DNA from: an uncultured Lachnoclostridium sp.
GTDB lineage: Bacteria > Bacillota > Clostridia > Lachnospirales > Lachnospiraceae
DNA: 38,760 bases
Assembly (NCBI GenBank): GCA_947369165.1
Contig: CANBKJ010000020.1
Location: forward strand, 1-38,760
Direction: 5' to 3'
The notes under the pieces were generated by a model that saw only the letters and a program-made list of their open reading frames with translations, was not told where the DNA came from and ran no database searches. Shown here one piece after another: positions 13,490 through 24,476 of the stretch. The translations under genes were made by a program, and so were the position numbers. The stretch's first letter is position 1; every line of letters begins with the position of its first letter.

Positions 13490-13779
13490 CTGTATAGGTT
13501 TCTGGTGACACGATACTGTCACATTTGCATGCACAGGCATGCAGCCTGACGGCACCAAATCCAACCCGATTCGATTTGGTATCGTCAGGCTAAACAGAAT
13601 TAATAGGGAAGCCGGTTCGATTCCGGCACAGCCCCCGCTGCCGTATTTGAAGATGCCGATAACAGGACCGGATTGCTATTCATGCACCCCGGTCAGCCAC
13701 TGGAACAGCCCATCGGGCATAATTATCTGGGAAGGCGTTATCTGCAGTTGATGCATAAGTCGGAAGACCTGCCATACAG
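13490..13779 (+). promoter_or_regulatory. Cobalamin (AdoCbl) riboswitch
   Basis: The core reads AATAGGGAAGCCGGTTCGAT followed by TCCGGCACAGCCCCCGCTGCCGT (about 13600-13645), and the 3' part reads AAGTCGGAAGACCTGCC (13757-13773). These are the conserved B12-box segments. P1 is formed by CTGTAT (13490-13495) and ATACAG (13774-13779). A long peripheral stem pairs GCCTGACG (13544-13551) with CGTCAGGC (13583-13590), with ACCAAATC/GATTTGGT inside. It is followed by two terminator-like hairpins, so it should lower transcription of the downstream DUF4430 gene when cobalamin is abundant. Confidence 0.95.
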
Positions 13780-13835
13780 TATGAAATATAACCTTTCGGA
13801 GGGAGAGGGAATGTTTTGACAGCTTATCAAATTGT

Positions 13836-17753: not shown

Positions 17754-18755
17754 TTATTTAGTCTTCGGTGCTTTGCTGGCAAATTCCGTATTCACCAGTT
17801 CCTCATAGGAAACCCGGCTGCTGAGCTCTCCCCCGGATTCCAGAATATCCTGCAAAAGATCGAAACTCTCCTTCTCAAAAACAAGATTGTCTTTCCAGGT
17901 CCCCTGGTCATAATATCGTTCTACTATAGTAGTCAACGTTTCCCGCTCCGTCTCTTTGAACTGGGGCTGTATCACCTCCGCGATTTCCTGCGGCGTATGG
18001 CTTTTTACAAAATCCATCCCCTTCTGGAGAGCGTTGGTAAACTTCTGAATGGTATCCGCATTTTTCTTGATATAACTTTCCTTAGTAGAATAGGCAGTAT
18101 AGGGAACCATTCCGCTGTCTACTCCGAGAGAAGCCACCACCACACCTTTCTTCTCTTTTTCCAGGGAAGCTGCAAAGGGTTCAAATTCCACCGAGTAATC
18201 CCCCTGTCCTGAAGCAAAAGCTTCTGCGGTAAGTCCAAAATCGATATTTTGTACCATCTTCAGATCCTTCTGGGGATCTATGTTATTCTTCTTTAGTATG
18301 TATTCGAATACCATCTGCGGCATACCACCCTTCCTTCCTGCCAGTACTGTCTTCCCTTTCAGTTTATCCCAGGTAAAATCTTCATCGGCTTTCCTTGCCA
18401 CCAGAAAATTACCGGCGCGCTGCGTCAGCTGGGCAAAGTTGATAATCTTTTCTCCCGATCCCTCGTTAAACACATAGATCGATGCCTCCGATCCCATAAA
18501 TCCAATGTCTGCCTCCCCTGATAACACCGCTGTCATTACATTATCGGCGCCGGAACCATTGACCAGTTTTACATCCAGCCCTTCCTCTTTGAAATAACCT
18601 TTCTCAATAGCTACATACTGGGGAGCATAGAAAATGGAATGTGCCACTTCATTCAGTGTGATGGACGTCATCCCTTCCTCCTCCTTTTTAGCACAGCTGC
18701 ACAGAGAAAGTACCAATAGAGAAAAAATCAGCGCCAGAACCACGATTTTTTTCAT
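17754..18755 (-). CDS. ABC transporter substrate-binding lipoprotein, NMT1/THI5-like (orphan)
   Basis: This 333-residue lipoprotein has a signal peptide with lipobox L18-C19-S20-C21. The mature part has the NitT/TauT-SsuA-THI5 fold: SITLNEVAHSIFYAPQYVAIEKGYFKEEGLDVKL, GEADIGFMGSEASI, GKTVLAGRKGGMPQM, DFGLTAEAFASGQGD. Family members bind nitrate, sulfonates, riboflavin or the thiamine pyrimidine precursor. No permease or ATPase gene is adjacent: the next gene is a divergent sirtuin and the previous one is unrelated. It would need a partner elsewhere. AGGAGG upstream of ATG 18755 fixes the start. The nearby thiazole operon makes a thiamine-related ligand possible but unproven. Confidence 0.88.
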   Translation of the reverse strand: MKKIVVLALIFSLLVLSLCSCAKKEEEGMTSITLNEVAHSIFYAPQYVAIEKGYFKEEGLDVKLVNGSGADNVMTAVLSGEADIGFMGSEASIYVFNEGSGEKIINFAQLTQRAGNFLVARKADEDFTWDKLKGKTVLAGRKGGMPQMVFEYILKKNNIDPQKDLKMVQNIDFGLTAEAFASGQGDYSVEFEPFAASLEKEKKGVVVASLGVDSGMVPYTAYSTKESYIKKNADTIQKFTNALQKGMDFVKSHTPQEIAEVIQPQFKETERETLTTIVERYYDQGTWKDNLVFEKESFDLLQDILESGGELSSRVSYEELVNTEFASKAPKTK

Positions 18756-20631: not shown

Positions 20632-21208
20632 TCATAAATCCAGACATCACGCACACTCCTGCCGCGCCAGCCTGCACGACAGCTTCCGCGTTTTCCTGAC
20701 AAATGCCGCCGATGCCATATACAGGAATGTGTATACACCCGGACACCTTTTGGATAAAATCCAGTCCCCGTCCTGGCAGCCCTTTTTTGCAGTCAGTTTC
20801 AAACACATGACCGGCGATCACATAATCTGCCCCCAATCCCTCTGCCCTCTTTGCCTGTTCGATCGAATGTACAGAAGATCCAATTTTCTGAAAATAATTC
20901 CTCACCCCATCGGGCAGTGTTTCAAGAACCCCCAGGGGAAGATGGATGTTCCGGCAGTGCAACTTCCAGGCACTCTCCCAGAAGTTGTGAAGAATACACG
21001 TCATATTAGTCTCCTGACAGATCCGCTGTACATTTTCCGCCACCTTCTCATATTCACTCTGGGAAAGATCTTTTTCTCTCAAAAGAATAGCGTCCGCTTC
21101 CCTCTTCTGAGCGATCTGCCGGATTCTCTCATTAAAATCTCCCTGACACAGTTTTCTATTGGTGACACACAAACATGGGATTCCATCACCGCTACTTGTT
21201 TTATACAT
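20618..21208 (-). CDS. tenI: TenI-family thiazole tautomerase (ThiE-like fold)
   Basis: This 196-residue TIM-barrel protein resembles Bacillus TenI more than ThiE. It has SVHSIEQAKRAE, AGHVFETDCKKGLPGRGL and GIGGI...AGAAGVCVMSGF. TenI carries the His of GHVFETD as its catalytic base, whereas ThiE usually has GPvFpT there. The ThiE residues for pyrimidine pyrophosphate binding are poorly conserved (HNFWESAW instead of NDR). TenI aromatises the thiazole tautomer made by ThiG, which suits its place last in thiS-thiG-thiH-tenI. Its ATG overlaps the end of thiH by 8 bases, and its 3' end overlaps metA convergently. A true ThiE must lie elsewhere. Confidence 0.85.
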   Translation of the reverse strand: MYKTSSGDGIPCLCVTNRKLCQGDFNERIRQIAQKREADAILLREKDLSQSEYEKVAENVQRICQETNMTCILHNFWESAWKLHCRNIHLPLGVLETLPDGVRNYFQKIGSSVHSIEQAKRAEGLGADYVIAGHVFETDCKKGLPGRGLDFIQKVSGCIHIPVYGIGGICQENAEAVVQAGAAGVCVMSGFMTIRQ

Positions 21209-22406
21209 ATATATAATCGCTCATTACCGGCTGCAGCCCATGATCGCGGATCGCCTGGTACACCTCATCCACCGTCCTCGTGTCGTCAATCTCAAACTGT
21301 TCATCTCCCTTTTCCTCTCCACCCCGGCCTCCAATGCCAACATTTACCCCAGCAGAAATCTTGGTAGCAGCGATTTGTATCAAATGATCTCTCACCCTCT
21401 CACACTCTCTGGTGGAAACAGTTATATTAGAAAATGGCAGGAACAGCCGGTAGGCACACACAACCTGAAGCAGCTGCGCCTCTTGAACATCCATGGGGTT
21501 GATCTTGTCATTGTTAATGATCGGGCGCAGTCTCGGACAGGAAAATGCAATCTCTGCATGGGGATATTTTCGCTGAATATACCACGCATGCATGCCCGTG
21601 GCAAAGGCATCCCGCCTAAAATCATCCAGTCCCAGCAACGCCGCAAATCCCACGCCCCGCATTCCTCCCCTGACAGCTCTTTCCTGGGAATTCAGGCGAT
21701 AGGGGAAAATCCGTTTTCTTCCCGCCAGATGAAGCGTCTCATACTTACCAGAATGATAGGTCTCCTGAAATACTGTGACAAAATCGGCGCCACACTCATG
21801 AAGATATTGATACTCCTCAGAATTCACCGGATATATCTCCAGACCGATTACTTTGAAATATTTCCGGGCGATCTTGCATGCCTCCCCGATGTATCTGACA
21901 TCCGACATCTTCTGGCTCTCTCCCGTCAGAATCAAAACCTCCTGGAGACCCGTTTTGGCAATCTCCTGCATTTCTTTCTCAATCTCTCCCATGTTCAGTC
22001 TGGCACGTTTGATGTTATTGTGACAGTTGAAGCCGCAGTAAATGCAATAGTTCTCACAATAATTTGCAATGTAGAGGGGTGTAAACATAGCGATAGAATT
22101 TCCAAAATGTTTTCTTGTCTCCGCCTGTGCTGCCTGGGCAATCTCCTCCAAAAGAGGAAGAGCCGCCGGAGAGAGCAGCGCTGCAAAGTCTTCTGGCCCT
22201 TTCCTGTCATGGTTAAGGGCATTTTTAACATCCGCCGCCGTATAACGCTCACAATCAAATGCCTCCGCCGCTTTTATTACCAATTTATCAATCTCCGAAT
22301 CTAGAACCTCCATACCTTCCAAATAGGTCATATGATCTGTCCTGTTTTCTTTTAGATGTTCTTTGATCTCTTCATTTAAAATACTTTCATTGATTCTCTC
22401 TGTCAT
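21201..22406 (-). CDS. thiH: 2-iminoacetate synthase ThiH
   Basis: This 401-residue radical SAM enzyme cleaves tyrosine to dehydroglycine for thiazole synthesis in anaerobes. The cluster motif is CENYCIYCGF (C-x3-C-x2-C), preceded by FTPLYIANYC. The later parts, LTGESQKMSDVRYIGEAC, GLEIYPVNSEEY and ETYHSGKYETLH, match ThiH. The start is ATG 22406 with GGAGAAAGGG upstream. Use of ThiH rather than ThiO for dehydroglycine indicates an oxygen-sensitive lifestyle. Confidence 0.95.
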   Translation of the reverse strand: MTERINESILNEEIKEHLKENRTDHMTYLEGMEVLDSEIDKLVIKAAEAFDCERYTAADVKNALNHDRKGPEDFAALLSPAALPLLEEIAQAAQAETRKHFGNSIAMFTPLYIANYCENYCIYCGFNCHNNIKRARLNMGEIEKEMQEIAKTGLQEVLILTGESQKMSDVRYIGEACKIARKYFKVIGLEIYPVNSEEYQYLHECGADFVTVFQETYHSGKYETLHLAGRKRIFPYRLNSQERAVRGGMRGVGFAALLGLDDFRRDAFATGMHAWYIQRKYPHAEIAFSCPRLRPIINNDKINPMDVQEAQLLQVVCAYRLFLPFSNITVSTRECERVRDHLIQIAATKISAGVNVGIGGRGGEEKGDEQFEIDDTRTVDEVYQAIRDHGLQPVMSDYIYV

Positions 22407-22456
22407 TTTTCCCTTTCTCCATTTTATCGTTCTCACATGTTTCAATAAAGAGGTAA

Positions 22457-23270: not shown

Positions 23271-23348
23271 TTTTATCCTCTCCTCATCTTTCTTTTCTTA
23301 ACATCTTCTAAATTTATTCCAACATACGTGTTCCACAAAAATAAAGAA

Positions 23349-23546
23349 TCAGCCTCCTCCCACAAAACTCACCACCTCGACTTTATCTCCACTCTTCACC
23401 CTTGTTTCATTATAAATTGATTTGGAAATGATCTCCCCATTGATCTCTACTGCGATCTTACGACTATCATAACCTTCTCGTTCTAAAAGTTCCGTTAATG
23501 AGAGATCTGTATACTGCTCTTTTTCTTTTCCATTTAGTATTATCAT
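23349..23546 (-). CDS. thiS: Sulfur carrier protein ThiS
   Basis: This 65-residue ubiquitin-fold protein ends in VSFVGGG, the C-terminal diglycine that is adenylated by ThiF and turned into thiocarboxylate. The N-terminal MIILNGKEKEQ strand and SLTELLEREGYDSRKIAVEINGEII are typical. ATG 23546 is preceded by AAAGGAGGA, so the longer frame to 23594 is wrong. It heads the thiSGH-tenI operon. No thiF is found in the window. The ribosome site sits directly beside the closing stem of the structured leader at 23561-23784. Confidence 0.93.
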   Translation of the reverse strand: MIILNGKEKEQYTDLSLTELLEREGYDSRKIAVEINGEIISKSIYNETRVKSGDKVEVVSFVGGG

Positions 23547-23560
23547 GGTGTCCTCCTTTC

Positions 23561-23784
23561 TTGCGCCTTTAACCCGTCCTTTGTCGCCTCGCACCAGTCA
23601 CAGCGCTCCGCTTCTGTGACTGGTCGCGGCATTCGCCGCATACTCTGAAAAACATACCGGTCACATCGTGCAAGCACATGTGACCATATGTTTTCAGAGT
23701 GCGAGGCTCAAAGCTAACGCGCAAAAAGAGGATAGCACATGAAAGCTACACCCGCGGTGGTGTACCCCTTCATGAGATATCCTC
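23561..23784 (-). ncRNA. Candidate structured leader RNA of the thiSGH-tenI operon
   Basis: On the minus strand two folds lie between promoter and thiS. Fold 1 (23784 to 23728): GAGGATA/TATCCTC, CATGAA/TTCATG and TACACC/GGTGTA stacked with small internal loops, then five T (23727-23723 region), so terminator-like. Fold 2 (23724 to 23561): a closing stem of TTGCGC/GCGCAA, CTTTG/CAAAG and GCCTCGC/GCGAGGC encloses three hairpins, namely ACTCTGAAAACATA with GGTCACAT (23642-23700), GCGGC/GCCGC (23626-23639) and CAGTCACAG/CTGTGACTG (23595-23622). The closing stem ends two bases from the AAAGGAGGA of thiS. I see none of the TPP riboswitch signatures (CTGAGA, ACCTGAT). Confidence 0.65.
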
Positions 23785-23795
23785 AATCTTTTAAT

Positions 23796-23824
23796 ATCTT
23801 ATCATATATATCTGATGTTGTCAA
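23796..23824 (-). promoter_or_regulatory. Strong sigma-A promoter of thiSGH-tenI
   Basis: The minus strand reads TTGACA (23824-23819), 17 bases, then TAAGAT (23801-23796), with TG one base before the -10. Transcription should start near 23789, only about five bases before the first leader hairpin. Confidence 0.85.
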
Positions 23825-23858
23825 TTCAAGATAGCATATATCAAACTATTTTTATGAA

Positions 23859-24476
23859 CTATATACCATACTCCTCCATCAATAGCCCATGCAGAATCAG
23901 ATCCCTTGCTGCCATTACAATTTCTTCTGTTCTGCCATCCTCAGCCAGACAGACATTCAAATGATTTATTCGTTCTGTTGTTTCTACACGTCCTTCTTCT
24001 CGTCCTTCTGCCAGCAACGCCTCTGTAAATTCACACATATACCTCACTCCTTTCCCCTCTTCTTTCAAATATGCTACTCTTTTTCTTAAATTCTCAAACT
24101 TTACTGTATCCGGCGAAAATACTGTTGTTGAGTTTTTTATTTATTCCAACAATGCAGTCTGCTCCATTGTTGACGCTGGGAAAGTTAAATTAGCATAAAT
24201 TTCGTGTACCCCATTCGGTATCTCTCGGTTTGTACCTTTTATTATTCGAACTATCTCTGAACATCCCGTCTGCGTATTTAAAAAATCCTTTTCTGTAATA
24301 AAAATGAGATACAAATCCGGCAGATCTGCGTAACTGGCTCCTGTTCCCAGCACCCGGCTATCGATCCGGCTCTGGATAAATCGTGAACGTTTCAGATGAT
24401 CCTCGTCCTCAGCTATCTGAAGTTCAATATTATACTGTCTTTTCTGAGAGTCCTCCGCCCAGACATCAAGTACTTT
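23859..24476 (-). pseudogene. Decayed PD-(D/E)XK transposase-like gene (Rpn/PDDEXK_2 family)
   Basis: One frame continues from just after the ylqH stop codon to 23859. It has no start codon of its own, and one in-frame TAA at 24141-24143 interrupts it. The first part reads VLDVWAEDSQKRQYNIELQ (the nuclease core, with D and E-x-Q), RFIQSRIDSRVLGTG and LPDLYLIFITEKDF. After the stop come LRKRVAYLKEEGKGVRYMCEFTEALLAEGREEGR and a normal-looking C-terminus. The usual N-terminal 50-70 residues are missing. This family is widespread and multi-copy in Lachnospiraceae. The remnant is inactive as read. Confidence 0.82.

What the first reader, a model, noticed from the sequence alone, without database searches (positions are those of the whole stretch)
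23561..23824. Undescribed-looking structured leader replaces a TPP riboswitch before thiSGH-tenI
Seen: a strong extended -10 promoter starts transcription about five bases before a long three-tier hairpin ending in U5. This is followed by a cloverleaf-like fold of three hairpins closed by a GC-rich helix that stops two bases from the thiS ribosome site. Known: thiazole operons in Firmicutes usually carry a TPP riboswitch, whose conserved CTGAGA and ACCTGAT segments I cannot find here. Inferred: the leader is a cis-regulator (ligand or protein sensing, attenuation plus control of translation), or the first hairpin is released as a small RNA.
Basis: partly seen in the sequence, partly recalled or inferred. 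Interest (0 to 1): 0.78.

Follow-up and report, generated by a model that had tools for sequence, protein, structure and literature searches.

The report
Riboswitch plus inserted cloverleaf RNA element
The leader before the thiamin gene thiS is two separate things: a known riboswitch class that senses the thiamin precursor HMP-PP, and just after it a cloverleaf-folding element of a poorly understood family scattered through gut bacteria, where copies also sit inside the gene for RNase P RNA.

Summary

(1) 23789-23723(-) is an HMP-PP riboswitch ("thiS motif", Atilho 2019): terminator-embedded hairpin, invariant GG/CC pseudoknot partners, a competing P1 and the thiS context. No Rfam 15 family matches it at E<=10. 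So it is not undescribed. No TPP riboswitch was found in this draft genome.

(2) 23722-23576(-) is a four-way-junction cloverleaf, in 6 of the 14 thiS leaders read. A covariance model matches 36/39 genus genomes (12 matches in this one) and 63/150 family genomes, but 3/51 genomes of other families. Covariation is strong (0.443 against 0.174 shuffled). Copies abut terminators, gene ends, T-box/TPP/lysine/HMP-PP leaders and tRNAs, and fill the P12 loop of some rnpB genes.

Late finding: many relatives score, mostly below threshold, against Rfam Clostridiales-1 RNA (RF01699, function unknown). The window copy does not.

Best reading: a known ON riboswitch followed by a divergent Clostridiales-1-like interspersed element, kept as a folded strand and probably not a thiS regulator.

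The parts
23796..23824 (-). sigma-A-type promoter TTGACA-17-TAAGAT with extended -10
   Evidence: similar -35/-10 boxes are read before the same hairpin in relatives
23723..23789 (-). HMP-PP riboswitch (thiS motif): terminator-embedded aptamer; terminator stem 23784-23728, T5 23727-23723
   Evidence: alignment A2 and pair counts; description in PMC6478431
23576..23722 (-). cloverleaf element (model R1 match, 132.4 bits; this copy is in the training set), divergent Clostridiales-1-like
   Evidence: relation of its relatives to RF01699
23642..23700 (-). arm A of the cloverleaf: long variable hairpin with GCTTGC apex
23626..23639 (-). arm B: GCGGC-GAAT-GCCGC
23593..23624 (-). arm C: variable hairpin with C-GNA-G triloop
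23701..23707 (-). 5' strand of the inner closing stem GCCTCGC (partner 23592-23586, GCGAGGC)
   Evidence: GCCACGC/GCGTGGC in G004 is a compensated change
23349..23546 (-). thiS, sulfur carrier protein
   Evidence: TIGR01683, 73.2 bits
22488..23270 (-). thiG
   Evidence: PF05690, 332.6 bits; no NCBIfam family
21201..22445 (-). thiH (start codon uncertain)
   Evidence: TIGR02351, 521.5 bits
20618..21208 (-). tenI/thiE-like gene
   Evidence: PF02581, 140.2 bits; below the NCBIfam TenI and ThiE cut-offs

Best explanation
Transcription starts a few bases before an HMP-PP riboswitch. Without HMP-PP the terminator hairpin forms and the RNA ends at the T5 run. With HMP-PP, P1 (UGAG/CUCA) plus a GG/CC pseudoknot forms, the lower terminator stem cannot close, and thiSGH-tenI is transcribed (mechanism published for the class; inferred here from sequence). 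Just after the U-tract lies one copy of an interspersed cloverleaf element: a closing stem, a long sequence-variable arm A with a GCUUGC-type apex, a short arm B and a variable arm C. The family is centred on one bacterial family (Lachnospiraceae by the named records), sits at the 3' edges of transcription units and of structured RNA genes, sometimes duplicates in tandem, and is related to Rfam Clostridiales-1 RNA. Its fold is maintained on the sense strand. It most likely behaves as a non-autonomous interspersed structured element, tolerated as a self-contained fold, and does not itself control thiS.
For: Riboswitch: over 10 aligned leaders (of 14; four near-identical ones left out) the terminator plus pseudoknot pairs 94.6% of cells, covariation 0.230 against 0.142 shuffled (0/500); pseudoknot GG/CC is invariant 10/10; the competing P1 pairs 90% of cells; thiS follows the hairpin on the same contig in 13 of 14 leaders, one of them with the hairpin cut by the contig end, and lies on another contig in G001 (thiS in relatives by reading). 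Published strictly conserved G26 and C35 fall on our G24 and C33 with one offset (my mapping, figure not seen). Cloverleaf: in 6 and not in 8 of 14 leaders; a 75% relative after the trpE T-box terminator; covariation 0.443 against 0.174 in A1 (0/500), 0.550 against 0.138 in the CM-fitted A3; 36/39 genus, 63/150 family, 3/51 other-family genomes; 27 of 69 copies have a hairpin and T-run directly upstream against 2/69 and 3/69 at control positions; it fills the P12 loop of RNase P RNA in 2 of 20 loci scanned, E about 1e-90, and by sequence in 11 records; near-identical copies stand at different sites in G204; copy number and presence are polymorphic. G.U exceeds A.C 37:15 when pairing treats both as mismatches.
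Against: No biochemistry. T5 is shorter than the six or more U the paper gives. P1 shows little covariation beyond shuffles (18/500 reach the score). Copies at the same place persist across species, which could mean a function. At the amtB-like site the genomes without it keep a remnant of the 3' repeat, so this looks like loss rather than an empty target. No mobilising enzyme was found; Y1 transposase shows no association. Only 8 of 60 genus copies have a terminator directly upstream by my rule; many start at a stop codon instead. The RF01699 relation is mostly below gathering score and absent for the window copy.
Confidence: 0.8

Rival explanations
1. The cloverleaf is a cis-regulator of thiS translation: in read-through RNA the freed 3' strand of the terminator (CCUCUUUUU) pairs with the thiS Shine-Dalgarno across the cloverleaf, which acts as a rigid spacer.
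For: With the aptamer part removed, predicted SD accessibility is 0.03-0.10 in 4 of 4 element-bearing leaders given to the call (of 6) and 0.72-0.90 when the terminator 3' strand is cut off.
Against: 8 leaders without the element give 0.14-0.83, so the pairing is partly generic to U-tract against SD. It would oppose an ON switch. Module copy number varies from 1 to 3, with another insertion in G001, and copies occur at gene ends far from any leader.
Confidence: 0.1
2. The cloverleaf is a functional small RNA or mRNA 3'-end module (Clostridiales-1 as a true ncRNA): it stabilises or processes transcript ends after terminators and stop codons and was recruited into rnpB.
For: Strong covariation and one-strand polarity of G.U and G.A mismatches; copies kept at the same gene ends across species; position at 3' ends; Clostridiales-1 was rated probably RNA, not cis-regulatory.
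Against: Matches per genome range from 0 to 20 in the genus, and 87/150 family genomes have none at the filter used; in leaders it lies beyond the U-tract, so it is absent from terminated RNA; no expression data.
Confidence: 0.3
3. The fold is a passive dsDNA palindrome kept perfect by arm-to-arm copying, with no selection on a single strand.
For: Arms are near-perfect palindromes of unrelated sequence.
Against: Isolated mismatches are strand-polar: G.U 37 against A.C 15, G.A plus A.G 54 against C.T plus T.C 0 in 60 arms. Among pairs of copies at least 90% identical I count 59 one-sided changes that keep a pair, 25 that break one and 37 double changes (rows; pairs of copies are not independent).
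Confidence: 0.07

Closest known systems
HMP-PP riboswitch / thiS motif (PMC6478431; PMC6429828)
   Same: Terminator-embedded hairpin with conserved loop, GG/CC pseudoknot partners, competing P1, directly upstream of thiS
   Different: Nothing essential. T5 rather than six or more U; the downstream leader carries an extra cloverleaf in 6 of 14 leaders read; no TPP riboswitch in tandem (approximately 30% of the class has one)
Rfam RF01699 Clostridiales-1 RNA (PMC2864571)
   Same: Closing stem of about 7 bp, long hairpin with GCUUGC apex, two further hairpins; Clostridiales and human gut
   Different: 1 of 60 genus loci reaches the gathering score. Of 20 of these scanned permissively, 11 more match below it at E<=0.0025 and one at E 2.7. 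The window copy has no match at E<=10. Middle arms align poorly. Positions at terminators, gene ends and rnpB P12 are not in the passages I saw
BOX / RUP / BIME-type interspersed repeats (PMC3049150, passages read)
   Same: Small interspersed folded elements; BOX is modular with variable copies of an inner module; enriched between convergent genes, that is at gene 3' ends; held to be non-autonomous
   Different: Fold conserved with almost free arm sequence; low copy; repeated placement in regulatory leaders and in RNase P RNA
STRR-expanded P12 of cyanobacterial rnpB (recalled, comes from no call)
   Same: Repeat-derived expansion of the P12 loop of RNase P RNA
   Different: Different sequence and fold; here a self-contained four-way junction

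Membership tests
HMP-PP riboswitch | Terminator-like hairpin followed by a U-run, upstream of thiS or other HET-P genes | tested here: met
   the T-run is T5 here, the paper says six or more U
HMP-PP riboswitch | Unusually conserved loop with pseudoknot G and C positions | tested here: met
   GG and CC invariant in 10/10; offset mapping to published G26/C35 is mine
HMP-PP riboswitch | Alternative P1 that excludes the lower terminator stem | tested here: met
   90% of P1 cells paired; weak covariation, 18/500 shuffles reach the score of the ON structure
HMP-PP riboswitch | HMP-PP binding and read-through | not testable with these tools
   needs in vitro transcription
TPP riboswitch RF00059 | Covariance-model match | tested here: not met
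Clostridiales-1 RNA RF01699 | Score at or above the gathering threshold (48 bits), cloverleaf family as a whole | tested here: inconclusive
   1 of 60 loci over threshold, none of the 20 loci; of 20 scanned permissively 12 at E<=0.0025 including that one, 1 more at E 2.7; of two other copies of this genome L389 scores 32.1 bits and L382 has none
Clostridiales-1 RNA RF01699 | Covariance-model match of the window copy | tested here: not met
   none at E<=10
MITE / BOX-type mobile repeat | Terminal inverted repeats | tested here: met
   closing stems such as GCAATGAGCC ... GGCTCATTGC, read; degenerate at the 3' side in the window copy
MITE / BOX-type mobile repeat | Target site duplication and an empty pre-insertion site | tested here: inconclusive
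   polymorphic site shows a remnant; target duplication not tested
REP/RAYT system | Co-occurrence with a Y1 transposase | tested here: not met
   36 both, 27 element only, 51 Y1 only, 36 neither of 150; Fisher p 0.87; none in G000 or G204
tRNA-like or group II intron | ARAGORN or Rfam match at the element | tested here: not met
   ARAGORN on 4 loci; Rfam at gathering score on 20 and 60 loci: no such match overlaps the element

The most novel reading that the evidence does not exclude
The cloverleaf family, of which Clostridiales-1 is a corner, is a mobile folded-strand element (RNA or ssDNA intermediate) that inserts next to hairpins and transcript ends by recognising structure rather than sequence. 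It has been domesticated at riboswitch and T-box leaders and inside the P12 loop of RNase P RNA, where the host ribozyme must carry it.
Probability: 0.3. Interest if true: 0.8.

Novelty: new variant of a known kind. Interest (0 to 1): 0.5.

Why it matters
It explains a puzzling leader by a published riboswitch class for which no Rfam 15 family matched here. It also gives an Rfam family of unknown function a wider circle of relatives, a sharper architecture and clear contexts. A folded element whose arms change freely while pairing is kept, and which is carried inside RNase P RNA, is a natural test of how far a catalytic RNA tolerates structured insertions. It also warns that strong covariation upstream of a gene need not mean regulation of that gene.

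Tried and rejected
TPP riboswitch: absent. First-hairpin small RNA: not needed once the HMP-PP class fits; a short terminated RNA is still expected. tRNA-like or group II intron nature of the cloverleaf: no match. 16-mer scan of viral contigs: 105 stretches, not followed up, since an exact 16-mer in so large a set gives many chance matches. Y1 transposase as partner: no association. Arm-to-arm copying as sole cause of pairing: against the strand polarity. Target-site duplication: not resolved. Translation gating through SD pairing: kept only as a weak rival. Paper searches for the cloverleaf or for such a repeat listed nothing that describes it; they cover one open-access library, and one search listed 10 of 8,671. 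The Clostridiales-1 link came only.

Rows dropped or chosen before counts: the 14 thiS leaders were found by DNA similarity to this leader, not by a survey of thiS. One search used 69 of 78 model matches (9 under 101 bases dropped; L258 among the 69 is probably chance). In one search four of the 15 genomes (G175, G191, G325, G439) show no palindrome and are probably chance. In one search at least one of the 77 (L243, a Pseudomonas record) is chance. In one search one of the 11 genomes (G013) has the string in a coding repeat. One search read 30 ordinary rnpB loci and matched 26. Searches took 60 genus matches down the score list, mostly leaving out loci already held (L465 repeats L399); many are the same place in sister species. 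One search took 20 of those 60. One search was given 4 of 6 element-bearing leaders (G001 and G018 are split over contigs). over all its pairs of copies: 414 double changes that keep a pair, 227 one-sided that keep it, 532 one-sided that break it, 139 double that break it; distant pairs align poorly, so I lean only on the close ones.

Full report
OBSERVATION. The region on the minus strand reads promoter, hairpin, T5, cloverleaf, Shine-Dalgarno, thiS. The fold is far beyond chance (-118.9 kcal/mol, z -9.85, 0/200 shuffles). The promoter is TTGACA-17-TAAGAT with an extended -10. Rfam finds nothing in the leader at gathering threshold. At E<=10 it gives five weak hits in 23300-24000, best a microRNA family at 0.19, all far below their gathering scores and none over hairpin 1. 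thiS, thiG, thiH and a TenI/ThiE-like gene follow.

TWO PARTS. A search with the leader in 61 genomes gave partial matches that break close to the border between hairpin and cloverleaf. These led to 14 thiS leaders (found by similarity, so not a survey). Hairpin 1 is in all 14. The cloverleaf is in six (G000, G001, G004, G017, G018, G024) and not in eight (G005, G023, G025, G029, G030, G031 twice, G034). In G001 and G018 the contigs break inside the cloverleaf; thiS of G001 is on another contig.

HAIRPIN 1 IS THE HMP-PP RIBOSWITCH. Atilho et al. (PMC6478431; abstract, section 6 and passages read) describe a terminator-embedded aptamer upstream of thiS, an ON switch for HMP-PP, with a pseudoknot between conserved G and C positions and a P1 that competes with the lower terminator stem. 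Stav et al. (PMC6429828; passages) report the motif's discovery. In ten aligned leaders (four near-identical ones left out) the terminator plus pseudoknot pairs 94.6% of cells, six pairs change on both sides (14/500 shuffles reach that), and covariation is 0.230 against 0.142, 0/500; the number of pair types is not in excess. The pseudoknot partners are invariant. P1 pairs 90% of its cells, with little covariation. Numbering from AGATTGAGG, the published G26 and C35 fall on G24 and C33 with one offset; I did not see the figure, so this mapping is mine. No TPP riboswitch is found in this genome, which is held at 92.6% completeness. An NMT1/THI5-like solute-binding protein at 17754-18755 fits a cell that handles pyrimidine precursors.

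THE CLOVERLEAF IS AN INTERSPERSED ELEMENT. A relative of about 75% identity lies after the T-box terminator upstream of trpE (named by reading) in the same genomes. The exact arm-B string is in 11 of 39 genus genomes, ten of them as elements, also after a tRNA-Thr gene and after an ordinary terminator. These records are why I take the unnamed family for Lachnospiraceae. Of 121 unique hits there, 77 have a single-loop hairpin of at least 18 bp with the apex motif between the two pattern ends. Of the other 44, 34 have a title and 30 of these are outside Clostridia, as chance predicts. A covariance model from 12 copies matches 36 of 39 genus genomes with 12 matches in this one, 63 of 150 family genomes, and in an order-wide draw 5 of 5 family genomes (own included) but 3 of 51 others, one strongly (G057, E 1e-13) and two at E about 0.001. 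On the 12 training copies covariation is 0.443 against 0.174, at most 0.112 when partners are slid. On 78 matches it is 0.550 against 0.138, at most 0.083 when slid; that alignment was fitted by the model and holds a few chance rows.

WHERE IT SITS. Of 69 copies in the named records, 27 have a hairpin and T-run directly upstream, against 2 and 3 at control positions. Of 60 genus copies, 8 do; many of the rest begin at or in the stop codon of the preceding gene. In those 60, Rfam sees a short way upstream three T-box leaders (one over threshold, two at 89.7 bits against 93), a TPP and a lysine riboswitch, 6S RNA twice and tRNA five times. Among 20 other loci it sees eight tRNAs (one, L197, in the opposite sense), two T-boxes and two RNase P RNAs. 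In these two the whole class A model aligns at E about 1e-90 with the element as an insert in the P12 loop. Eleven records show this by sequence, P12 segments of 164-235 nt against 40-70 nt in 26 ordinary ones; two of the eleven are the loci.

MOBILITY. G204 has ten pattern matches. The nine that I read start at the same border in different surroundings, and there the cloverleaf is the left part of a longer mosaic without a long reading frame in its first 520 nt. At a valS-like T-box leader the window genome and G018 carry two tandem copies and G017 and G004 one. At an amtB-like leader G000 and G018 carry it and G017 and G024 do not, with a remnant of the 3' repeat left, so loss is as likely as insertion. 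No partner enzyme is known; Y1 transposase is not associated.

WHICH STRAND MATTERS. In the fitted alignment G.U pairs outnumber A.C 127 to 46, and slid partners give about equal numbers. With pairing that treats both as plain mismatches, 60 arms give 37 against 15 (p 0.003), 47 non-redundant arms 29 against 10, and in the 60 arms G.A plus A.G is 54 against none for C.T plus T.C. So a folded single strand of sense polarity is what is kept, as RNA or as ssDNA; the data do not separate the two.

WHAT IT IS CALLED. At gathering score 1 of the 60 genus loci matches Rfam RF01699, Clostridiales-1 RNA, over the element, and none of the 20 loci does. Scanned permissively, 13 of 20 of these genus loci match over the whole model: 12 at E<=0.0025, one at E 2.7. 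Alignments agree in the closing stem and the long GCUUGC-tipped arm and are poor in the middle arms; a long hairpin alone may carry much of the score. One other copy of this genome (L389) scores 32.1 bits, L382 and the window copy have no match. The source paper (PMC2864571; passages with the table row) rates the motif probably RNA, not cis-regulatory, not a riboswitch. So the cloverleaf is best filed as a divergent relative, membership not settled.

EFFECT ON thiS. In read-through RNA the terminator's 3' strand is predicted to cover the Shine-Dalgarno in 4 of 4 element-bearing leaders tested, but leaders without the element show it too, less evenly. The leader tolerates one to three inner modules, the last often cut short, and a further insertion. 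I therefore think the element is carried, not used, in the thiS leader, with low confidence.

Noticed in passing
window 13560-13790 +: Cobalamin riboswitch, 81.2 bits, the only Rfam hit in the window at gathering threshold.
   Followed up: no
window 17754-18755 -: NMT1/THI5-like solute-binding protein, a possible pyrimidine-precursor importer near the thi operon.
   Followed up: no
L382 (own genome contig C55), upstream of an amtB-like start: A promoter-like sequence followed closely by a terminator hairpin with a cloverleaf copy after it, upstream of an ammonium-transporter-like gene (named by reading); could be another terminator-embedded sensor.
   Followed up: partly
L181, L439-L450 (genome G204): A high-copy mosaic of inverted repeats with 89 partial matches; L181 carries a TwoAYGGAY RNA (RF01731) match beside the cloverleaf.
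   Followed up: partly
   Followed up: no
L029 (G001 contig C123), between module copies and thiS: Unrelated sequence inserted inside the repeat modules of the thiS leader.
   Followed up: no
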